The notes under the pieces were generated by a model. It did no database searches. It saw only the letters and a program-made list of their open reading frames with translations, and was not told the origin of the DNA. Shown here piece by piece: positions 51,201 through 53,257 of a DNA stretch of 64,000 nt. Made by a program: the position numbers and the translations under genes. Numbering within the stretch: the first letter of the stretch is position 1; each line of letters opens with the position of its first letter. Origin of the DNA: Warburgia ugandensis (taxonomy: Eukaryota > Streptophyta > Magnoliopsida > Canellales > Canellaceae); assembly GCA_035236585.1 (NCBI GenBank), contig CP141126.1, forward strand, positions 8,507,001 to 8,571,000. Direction: 5' to 3'.

Positions 51201-53257
51201 TAGTTTTGGTTATATGTTGTTGGCTTTCAGAATACTTGTTCAATTTTAGATCTATGTGCTTCTTACTAACCAGGAGATATTTCTTCTTACACTTTTTTTT
51301 ATTGTTGAGAATCTTTCTGAACTTTTGATAAAAGACTTTGTTATGGTGCTGAAAACAACCAAGTTAGAGGGAATACCTGCTGTTTATGTGAACGCTGATA
51401 GTTTAGTATTGAACTATCAATGTTATTCTTGATATAACTATATTTGGAAAGCTATCTTTTATTTCTATCTTTATTGGAATCTTTTTGGTCTCTCACCTAT
51501 ACATTGTTTAGAAAACCATAGAATCTGTTCCCCGTAAAGAACTTTTGGGTAATTCTCAGGCTTCAGTTCGTGATTAGCACCCAAGCTTCACTTTTGGTCT
51601 GCAAGTAGGTCTTAAAGTCAATTTTATCTGTAACTTACCCACCAACTCTTAAAACTGGTCTACAAGTAGCTCCTTTGGACGGAAGTCATCATGTTGACAT
51701 TAAGTAGGGAGGGCATTTTGGAAACATTGACCCCCTTCTCCTTAAAATATCTAGAAAAACCTATTTCTTTTCCCTTCTGCTACAGCCGGCAGTGGCAGTG
51801 CATGCGCCATGGGCTGGAATCCTGGGTTTCCAGCCCACCACCATTGCCTATAAATACTGCTGGTGGTACAGGTTCCAGGAGCTATGTCTGGTCCAGCACC
51901 CTGAGAGTACCTGCCGGCAAACCTTGTACTGCCGGGATCCGACCCATTGGCATATCCCCAATTTGACTAATTTTTTTGTCTCCGTTACTGGTCAAATCCG
52001 TGTCTTAAAATCCATGAGACATCTTCATTTGGTCGTTCTTACCACTGCCTTTTGTACTGTCAGGTACATTAGTGTTACTGCACCTCTACCTTGACCAACA
52101 TTATTGTTCTTACCATCCTGATCACCACCAGTTTTGCCACCATACTTACCATCTTCGCCTTGATTTTGGCTGCCCGTTGATTGTTACAGCCACCCTTTCC
52201 ATTCTTCCCCTCCATTGCCATTTTTACCATCGTTTTTCCACCCATGTTCGTATTCACATAGCTTGCATGTTGATATCTCTACCCACTTTCTTCCCATTCC
52301 TCCCATCAATTGCTCCATAACCACCACCTTTTTTTATCACCCATCATCATCGTCATTTGGGGATTCATGCCTGGTTGGCCCTGGCCATTACCGATGCCTT
52401 GACCATTCATGGGTCACGTTGTGACCCTTCACCAACTCATGATCCAGGTCATCATCATCAAACTCATCTAGATCATTATCACTGAAATCATATTCTTCAA
52501 GCTGGTTCAGCTTGACAGATGTCTGATCCTTGAAGGGCAGTTTCAAGTCCTTCAATTGTGGTACCTTTGGATCTTTGAATTGCATGGGAGGGAAGTTAAA
52601 TCAGTTTGTTGGTTCAATAAGTTGCCAGTTGGAATATTTTCTATCCTCTGGAACTATGGAGTGGAATGCCAAAGAGGAGGAACCAAATTGAAAAACTTAT
52701 TGTATTTCTGAAATACCAAAGATTTGGCATCCATATCTTCAAGAAGAAGAAGAAAGAGTGGGAAAAAAAATTGGGTTGTTCTGTTTCAAGGAGAAGGGGG
52801 TCAAAATCTCCAAAATGACCTCCCTACTTAACGCCAACTGAACGAATTCCACCCAAAGGGGCTACTTAGACCAGTCATAGGAGATTGGGGGTGAGTTACA
52901 GACGGAATAGACGTTAGGGCCTACTCTCAGACCAAAATGGAGTTTGGAGGTTAATCGCCAAATGGAGCTTTAATTCTCACTTATTTTGTTGCAATGGGCG
53001 GGCACACATGGTATAGGTGCACTTTTGGCCCCGTGGGACTACACTTGATGGATCTCAAAGTTATTGATATTTGTGGTGCAGGAAGTGTGAAGTCGCTCAT
53101 AAGCTTGCCATGCTTTATGTCCCACGCGAGCATACCTGTCTCAGTTCGTGAATCCAGGGGCTTGACTGAAGACCTTGTTCGCATATCTGTGGGCATTGAG
53201 GACATTGATGATCTAGTAGCCGATTTGGACAGTGCTATTAGATCTGGACCTTTGTGA
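42274..53257 (+). CDS. CBL: Cystathionine beta-lyase, plastidial (13 exons, complete)
   Basis: A PLP enzyme of the Cys/Met metabolism family. It cleaves cystathionine to homocysteine, pyruvate and ammonia, the second-last step of methionine synthesis in plastids. Exons: 42274-42333, 42428-42617, 42714-42826, 42936-43006, 43120-43211, 43300-43387, 43476-43587, 45566-45662, 45749-45830, 49954-50071, 50844-50951, 51033-51135, 53082-53257. All have GT/AG borders and phases sum to 1410 nt (469 residues), close to the 464 of Arabidopsis. Exons 1-2 give a basic, Ser/Cys-rich transit peptide. Motifs: [71 protein letters not shown] with PLP lysine 283, [20 protein letters not shown], and the end [18 protein letters not shown]. 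Donor 5 (G|GTGGTT) is weak. Introns 9 and 12 are swollen by transposons, but the frame is whole. Confidence 0.96.
43588..45565 (+). other. CBL intron 7 with internal duplication
   Basis: A 1978-bp intron, GTATGA to TTTCAG. It contains a diverged tandem duplication (listed separately) but no recognisable transposon ends or coding sequence. Confidence 0.7.
44681..45030. repeat. About 175-bp tandem duplication in CBL intron 7, two diverged units
   Basis: Units start at 44681 and 44856 with ACTGTCATTTTAAATG, and share GGGTTAGAACCGTCACCAGA-like and AAGAGCTTCACCA words, TGGGACATTT, and CATATGAAAAAGA. The differences are numerous, so the duplication is not recent. Confidence 0.85.
46012..46016. repeat. 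Left 5-bp TSD of LTR-like insertion
   Basis: TTTAT precedes the element's TGTTGATT and recurs directly after its terminal TTAACA at 49551-49555. Five AT-only bases are weak evidence alone. Confidence 0.5.
46860..49130. repeat. Purine-rich (GA) low-complexity tract
   Basis: Apart from the AT-rich tail at about 48030-48415, this stretch is strongly A/G on the sense strand of CBL. It includes pure (GA)n runs at 46995-47040 and 47777-47809 and long GAGAGGGAGA-type arrays. It lies inside the LTR-like insertion. Confidence 0.9.
47099..47212. repeat. 57-bp tandem duplication
   Basis: Two units start at 47099 and 47156 (GATGATNTAAATTTAAAG) and share AAAACCCAAGTTGGGTTTTG, itself a near-palindrome, and AGCTAGTGCGA. 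They are almost identical, so this is a young local duplication. Confidence 0.88.
49597..49612. repeat. Left TSD of SINE copy 13
   Basis: TTTATGATTGTACTAT recurs exactly at 49807-49822, after the SINE's poly-T 3' end. Confidence 0.85.
49613..49806 (+). mobile_element. Au-type SINE copy 13, near-intact, in CBL intron 9
   Basis: The best-preserved copy in the window. It has GGGGAGCCTTGGCGCAACGG with the pol III A box at 49632-49642, TGACCTTGAGGTCACGGGTT with the B box at 49676-49686, CAGCCTCTTGTAAAAATGCA, the GC-rich CCCCGGACCCCGCATAGGCG and CTGCCC followed by a T run. Bracketed by a perfect 16-bp duplication (T-run overlap leaves the ends slightly uncertain). Its good state suggests a recent insertion. 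It lies in the sense of CBL, about 150 bp before exon 10. Confidence 0.95.
49807..49822. repeat. Right TSD of SINE copy 13
   Basis: An exact match to 49597-49612. Confidence 0.85.
50491..50502. repeat. Left TSD of SINE copy 14
   Basis: ATACATGGTTAT recurs exactly at 50693-50704. Confidence 0.85.
50503..50692 (-). mobile_element. Au-type SINE copy 14, near-intact, in CBL intron 10
   Basis: A full-length minus-strand copy, from the A run and GGTGCACGAAGCTCCTGC through TTGCATTTTGCAAGAAGCTG, CCACGCCTCGAACCCGTGA (B-box region) and CCGTTGCGCCAAGGCTCTCC (A-box region). It has a perfect 12-bp target-site duplication. It is antisense to CBL and opposite to SINE copy 13. Confidence 0.95.
50693..50704. 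repeat. Right TSD of SINE copy 14
   Basis: An exact match to ATACATGGTTAT at 50491-50502. Confidence 0.85.
51548..51742 (+). repeat. Left terminal inverted repeat arm
   Basis: It starts near GGTAATTCTCAGGCTTCAG and ends ACCCCCTTCTCCTTA. It pairs with 52788-52980 in inverse orientation. Confidence 0.75.
51780..52620 (-). pseudogene. Captured HIPP-like gene fragment (heavy-metal-associated isoprenylated plant protein, C-terminal half)
   Basis: On the minus strand, 52585-52388 reads [20 protein letters not shown] then [20 protein letters not shown] and DDDDLDHE. This is the LKLP-FKD, SVKF-LPED and acidic D/E run seen after the HMA domain of plant HIPP proteins. It is followed by a Gly/Lys/Asn-rich frame ([20 protein letters not shown], 52250-52190 region) and, near 51960-51910, PAVQGLPAG, matching the family's Gly-rich middle and [13 protein letters not shown] segment. 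The HMA metal-binding domain and the CaaX end are not seen, and the parts lie in different frames with stops, so it is not functional. It is antisense to CBL and enclosed by inverted repeats. Confidence 0.65.
52788..52980 (-). repeat. Right terminal inverted repeat arm
   Basis: It starts CAAGGAGAAGGGGGTC and ends near AGCTTTAATTCTCAC, about 100 bp before CBL exon 13. Complementary in order to the left arm. Confidence 0.75.

What the first reader, a model, noticed from the sequence alone, without database searches (positions are those of the whole stretch)
51548..52980. Pack-MULE-like element with an antisense HIPP gene fragment inside CBL intron 12
Two about 190-bp inverted arms enclose about 1 kb that resembles the C-terminal half of a heavy-metal-associated isoprenylated protein gene (LKLPFKD, acidic run, Gly/Asn-rich stretch, PAVQGLPAG). 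No transposase is seen. It is antisense to CBL, so any transcript from it could pair with HIPP mRNA or interfere with CBL.
Basis: partly seen in the sequence, partly recalled or inferred. Interest (0 to 1): 0.7.

Follow-up and report, generated by a model that had tools for sequence, protein, structure and literature searches.

The report
Old Pack-MULE transposon in plant gene
An old, decayed jumping gene that had copied pieces of two other plant genes landed in the last intron of a methionine-pathway gene; it is a well-known kind of element, here well documented by its undisrupted sister site.

Summary
The finding holds up. The element spans 51559-52970 (1412 bp), with ~210-bp terminal inverted repeats (76% alike) and a perfect 9-bp target duplication, TAATTCTCA. 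It sits in the last intron (51136-53081) of a + strand cystathionine beta-lyase (CBL) gene. A CBL paralogue on contig C3 has the same intron with one target copy and no element: an empty site. The interior carries 801 bp from the last exon of a HIPP gene, antisense to CBL, without the HMA domain or the C-terminal CSVM; two HIPP paralogues are candidate donors. A truncated relative on C5 carries the same two-gene chimera, so the element probably moved after capture. The HIPP frame is broken (10 of 14 gaps frame-breaking) and no transposase was seen. This is an ordinary non-autonomous chimeric Pack-MULE, a fossil most likely spliced out with the intron. Regulation of HIPP or CBL is possible but untested: each HIPP paralogue shares one identical run of 21 nt or more with it.

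The parts
51136..53081 (+). Last intron of the CBL gene, host of the element (GT..AG)
   Evidence: Exon ..[10 protein letters not shown] / [11 protein letters not shown].. junction, GT at 51136, AG at 53080-53081; last exon matches PF01053
51550..51558 (+). Left target-site duplication TAATTCTCA
   Evidence: Perfect 9-bp match to 52971-52979; single copy (two letters different) in the CBL paralogue
51559..52970 (.). Whole Pack-MULE, 1412 bp
   Evidence: Arms, TSD and empty site
51559..51774 (+). Left terminal inverted repeat
   Evidence: 76% to the right arm over 216 columns; genome relatives
51779..52579 (-). Captured HIPP last-exon fragment (about residues 112-416 of the 443-aa C3 ORF), no HMA domain, no C-terminal CSVM, frame broken
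   Evidence: 72% / 70% to C3 and C1 HIPP genes; 10 of 14 gaps frame-breaking against C3, tblastn pieces in two frames
52578..52699 (+). Second captured fragment, from an intron of a low-molecular-weight protein tyrosine phosphatase gene (donor C3:81481480-81481612)
   Evidence: 79%, E 1.2e-24; donor-side frames before and after it match PF01451
52700..52759 (.). Subterminal stretch of unknown origin, shared with the C5 relative
   Evidence: Alignment to L011
52760..52970 (-). Right terminal inverted repeat
52971..52979 (+). Right target-site duplication TAATTCTCA

Best explanation
A non-autonomous Mutator-like transposon captured, end to end, a piece of a HIPP gene's last exon and a piece of a phosphatase gene's intron. 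It was mobilised by a transposase supplied in trans and inserted into the last CBL intron after the CBL gene had been duplicated, giving the 9-bp duplication. It has since decayed. Today it is most likely removed with the intron during splicing and has no function of its own. Shown: arms, target duplication, empty site, sources of both pieces, a second chimeric copy, decay. Inferred: cut-and-paste by a MULE transposase, capture by gap filling or template switching, inertness.
For: Arms and perfect 9-bp TSD; empty site in the C3 CBL paralogue, where the alignment breaks at 51545/52972 with a single target copy; HIPP and phosphatase sources; truncated relative C5:23325310-23326076 with HIPP, the same phosphatase-intron piece and one arm; L019 with ~188-column arms at 78% and a 9-bp repeat CACAACACA; MULE transposase domains are plentiful in this genome (150 matches, from 150 scored of 478 candidates); frame broken.
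Against: The arms differ more (K2P 0.274) than the CBL paralogues do (0.156-0.176 in three mixed intron/exon stretches), although the empty site says the insertion is younger than that duplication; the arms must have differed already at insertion or mutated faster. The C5 arm is no closer to this element's arms (0.281 and 0.367) than they are to each other. No transposase-bearing element with these arms was found (by eye). No expression or methylation data.
Confidence: 0.93

Rival explanations
1. The element is still a regulator: CBL pre-mRNA, or a promoter in the arms, makes antisense-HIPP RNA that yields siRNAs against the HIPP paralogues.
For: Strand is right, since CBL transcription reads the HIPP antisense strand; runs identical to HIPP of 41 nt (C1) and 24 nt (C3); arms could pair (-251 kcal/mol against a mean of -79 for 100 mononucleotide-shuffled pairs). 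PMC8277862 says Pack-MULEs possibly encode small RNAs (passages).
Against: Only one run per HIPP paralogue reaches 21 nt; the longest perfect run between the arms is 17 nt; the piece is decayed.
Confidence: 0.05
2. The element damps or alters CBL expression through intronic heterochromatin or intron retention.
For: In rice over 10% of genes contain intronic heterochromatin, mostly TE- or repeat-associated (PMC7145194, abstract and passages).
Against: In the same paper about half of TE-containing introns (980 of 1,967) did not overlap heterochromatic introns; GT and AG of the intron are present and the element has no AATAAA on the + strand. The CBL reading frame was not tested end to end.
Confidence: 0.06
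3. Not a transposon: a chance inverted repeat beside a HIPP pseudogene.
For: None found.
Against: TSD, empty site, dispersed arm relatives, second chimeric copy.
Confidence: 0.01

Closest known systems
Pack-MULEs of rice, maize, tomato and Arabidopsis
   Same: 9-11 bp TSD, TIRs typically 100-500 bp, captured gene fragments, non-autonomous; tomato Pack-MULEs peak at 1000-1200 bp with a minor peak at 1300-1400 bp (PMC3310237, passages)
   Different: Sources here are HIPP and a phosphatase intron; 0 held papers have both 'Pack-MULE' and 'heavy metal-associated isoprenylated'. TIRs are 76% alike, below the 80% minimum used to build the tomato library in that paper.
PM-ZIBP Pack-MULE family of tomato
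   Same: Multi-copy Pack-MULE around a captured gene fragment (PMC3310237, passages)
   Different: 13 PM-ZIBP copies have tandem TIRs and one has single TIRs; here TIRs are single and only two copies of the chimera were found (lower bound)

Membership tests
Mutator-like element (MULE) | 9-11 bp target-site duplication | tested here: met
   TAATTCTCA, 9 of 9; single copy at the empty site
Mutator-like element (MULE) | Long TIRs, typically 100-500 bp | tested here: met
   ~210 bp, 76%
Mutator-like element (MULE) | TIR homology to an autonomous, transposase-bearing MULE | tested here: inconclusive
   12 and 8 arm matches in the genome, the element's own two arms included each time, lower bounds; none of the 150 scored PF10551 matches (of 478 candidates) lies at them, the nearest being about 20 kb away; the widest arm pair (C2) holds retrotransposon-like ORFs (by eye)
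Pack-MULE | Carries gene fragments with identifiable sources elsewhere | tested here: met
   HIPP and phosphatase sources
Pack-MULE | No transposase gene inside | tested here: met
   Interior is accounted for by the two fragments plus ~60 bp; longest ORF listed there is 100 aa and lies over the HIPP antisense strand; the interior as such was not scanned with a transposase profile beyond
Pack-MULE | Transcription or small RNAs | not testable with these tools
   No RNA data

The most novel reading that the evidence does not exclude
By this insertion CBL, a sulfur-amino-acid gene, gained an antisense tie to a metal-chaperone (HIPP) gene pair: retained CBL intron RNA yields siRNAs through the 41-nt and 24-nt identical runs, coupling methionine synthesis to HIPP levels in this lineage, with the element-free CBL paralogue as natural control.
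Probability: 0.03. Interest if true: 0.65.

Novelty: new member of a known kind. Interest (0 to 1): 0.2.

Why it matters
As a case it is tidy: one genome shows the filled site, an empty site, candidate sources of both captured pieces and a sister copy of the chimera, so part of the order of events can be read (insertion after the CBL duplication). It adds no new kind of element. If regulatory, it would be a lineage-specific link between two unrelated pathways.

Tried and rejected
Donor choice between the two HIPP paralogues could not be settled: at 105 sites where C3 and C1 differ, the element agrees with C3 at 52, with C1 at 39 and with neither at 14, and the tree of 6 rows leaves element, C3, C1 and C5 copy unresolved. 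Dating by arm divergence was rejected because it contradicts the empty site. A hoped-for autonomous element at C2:75101250-75114849 (arms about 13.6 kb apart) seems to hold retrotransposon-like ORFs between the arms (read by eye, no family search). TSD searches (offsets up to 15 bases at either end) gave none at L021 and at L022 only a 9-mer with one mismatch, 2 and 6 bases off the assumed ends. Pfam found no family in the 65-aa HIPP-sense ORF or in the phosphatase-intron ORF. HIPP-like fragments at C12:31.94 Mb and C5:71.03 Mb showed no arms of this family and were not pursued. Of the 17 stretches fetched (L009-L025) all entered the BLAST; arm pairing used 11 of them (L014, L015, L017-L025) plus L050-L056.

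Full report
What is there. The window lies at C1:8507001-8571000 of a 1.12-Gb genome in 14 contigs, a plant by its genes (inference). Reading the ends shows a perfect 9-bp repeat TAATTCTCA at 51550-51558 and 52971-52979 around a 1412-bp element, 51559-52970. Its arms align at 76% over 216 columns. The same length placed at random 3000 times in the window gave 0 perfect 9-mers within 3 bases of both ends.

Where it is. The last CBL exon (53082-53257) lies in an ORF that matches PF01053 at E 3.4e-19. Six PF01053 matches in order on the + strand fall in the window; one of them, at window 50841-50954, is reported with a TAG inside, as is the corresponding match of the paralogue, probably by running into the intron (inference). 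The element lies in the last intron, 51136-53081. Exons were read by eye from open frames and the CBL reading frame was not tested end to end; the split of the N-terminal exons is unsettled, so 'intron 12' is plausible but unproved.

Empty site. A CBL paralogue at C3:85.88 Mb aligns with the window up to 51545 and again from 52972, with 8 bases between in the paralogue, and carries one copy of the target, CAATTTTCA against TAATTCTCA. The insertion therefore most simply post-dates that duplication; loss by precise excision is the less simple alternative.

First cargo. Element positions 221-1021 match a 443-aa HIPP ORF on C3 (72%) and a 425-aa one on C1 (70%). Both ORFs give a partial HMA match below Pfam's cut-off (19.4 and 21 bits against 24.8), as expected for the part of the domain in a last exon; the C3 gene has an upstream frame with CDGC, and the same pattern returned none for C1. 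That these are HIPPs rests on the partial HMA match, that frame and the C-terminal CSVM (CaaX-like, recalled). The element holds about residues 112-416. Against C3, 10 of 14 gaps break the frame and the protein match falls in two frames.

Second cargo. Positions 1020-1141 match C3:81481480-81481612 at 79%. That stretch lies between two frames that match PF01451, low-molecular-weight phosphotyrosine phosphatase, so I take it as intron DNA; a search with 651 bases around it found only the source itself, this element and the C5 relative. The HIPP and phosphatase matches overlap by 2 bases.

Relatives. C5:23325310-23326076 holds one arm, the phosphatase piece and 446 bp of HIPP-like sequence; its HIPP and phosphatase matches overlap by 8 bases, as after a deletion at a short match, and the far end is missing. 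For the phosphatase piece the two elements look closest to each other (K2P 0.098 on 109 sites that include some subterminal sequence, against 0.155 on 122 and 0.209 on 88 sites to the source). For the HIPP piece they do not (0.212 to each other, 0.177 and 0.187 to C3, on 391 shared columns). Where C3 and C1 agree, the two elements share a different letter at 8 sites, while the element alone differs at 27 and the C5 copy alone at 30; at 3 of the 8 a further HIPP fragment has that letter too. A shared chimeric ancestor is the simplest reading, chiefly because both carry the same pair of fragments in the same order. Arm searches gave 12 and 8 places, the element's own arms included (lower bounds). 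Of the loci examined, L019 (also fetched as L050), L021 and L022 have a paired arm close by; L019 has a perfect 9-bp repeat, 3 and 1 bases off the ends I had assumed and somewhat low in complexity (CACAACACA), L022 a weak one and L021 none.

Timing. CBL paralogue K2P is 0.156-0.176 in three stretches, HIPP C3-C1 0.150 and the arms 0.274. The tree of 6 rows does not resolve whether capture came before or after the HIPP duplication.

Function. The CBL transcript would carry antisense-HIPP sequence. Identical runs of at least 16 nt with the captured regions: 24 and 20 nt with C3, 41 and 16 nt with C1. The arms can pair, -251 against a mean of -79 kcal/mol for 100 shuffled pairs (mononucleotide shuffle, and inverted arms pair by construction). 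None of this shows a function, and decay argues against one.

Literature. TSD, TIR and cargo criteria come from passages of PMC3310237; capture models and small-RNA remarks from passages of PMC8277862; intronic heterochromatin from the abstract and passages of PMC7145194; passages of PMC8903248 say that more than 3000 such elements were annotated in rice. No held paper has both 'Pack-MULE' and 'heavy metal-associated isoprenylated'. That Pack-MULEs with pieces of several genes are long known is recalled, from no call.

Noticed in passing
window 46016-49550: Another CBL intron is about 3.5 kb longer here than in the C3 paralogue, where the flanking alignments meet; it holds GA-rich repeats that read as RERERE: a second insertion or a repeat expansion.
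   Followed up: no
L012 4000-4640; L013 4330-4800: Two further decayed HIPP-like fragments (C12:31.94 Mb, C5:71.03 Mb) without arms of this family; origin unknown.
   Followed up: partly
L011 about 4580-4760: Where the C5 relative is cut off, the sequence looks like a tRNA-derived Au-type SINE (recalled resemblance, not tested; sequence).
   Followed up: no
window 52340-52380 (place worked out by arithmetic): A 41-nt stretch is identical to the C1 HIPP gene inside DNA that otherwise differs by ~20%: chance, constraint or gene conversion.
   Followed up: no
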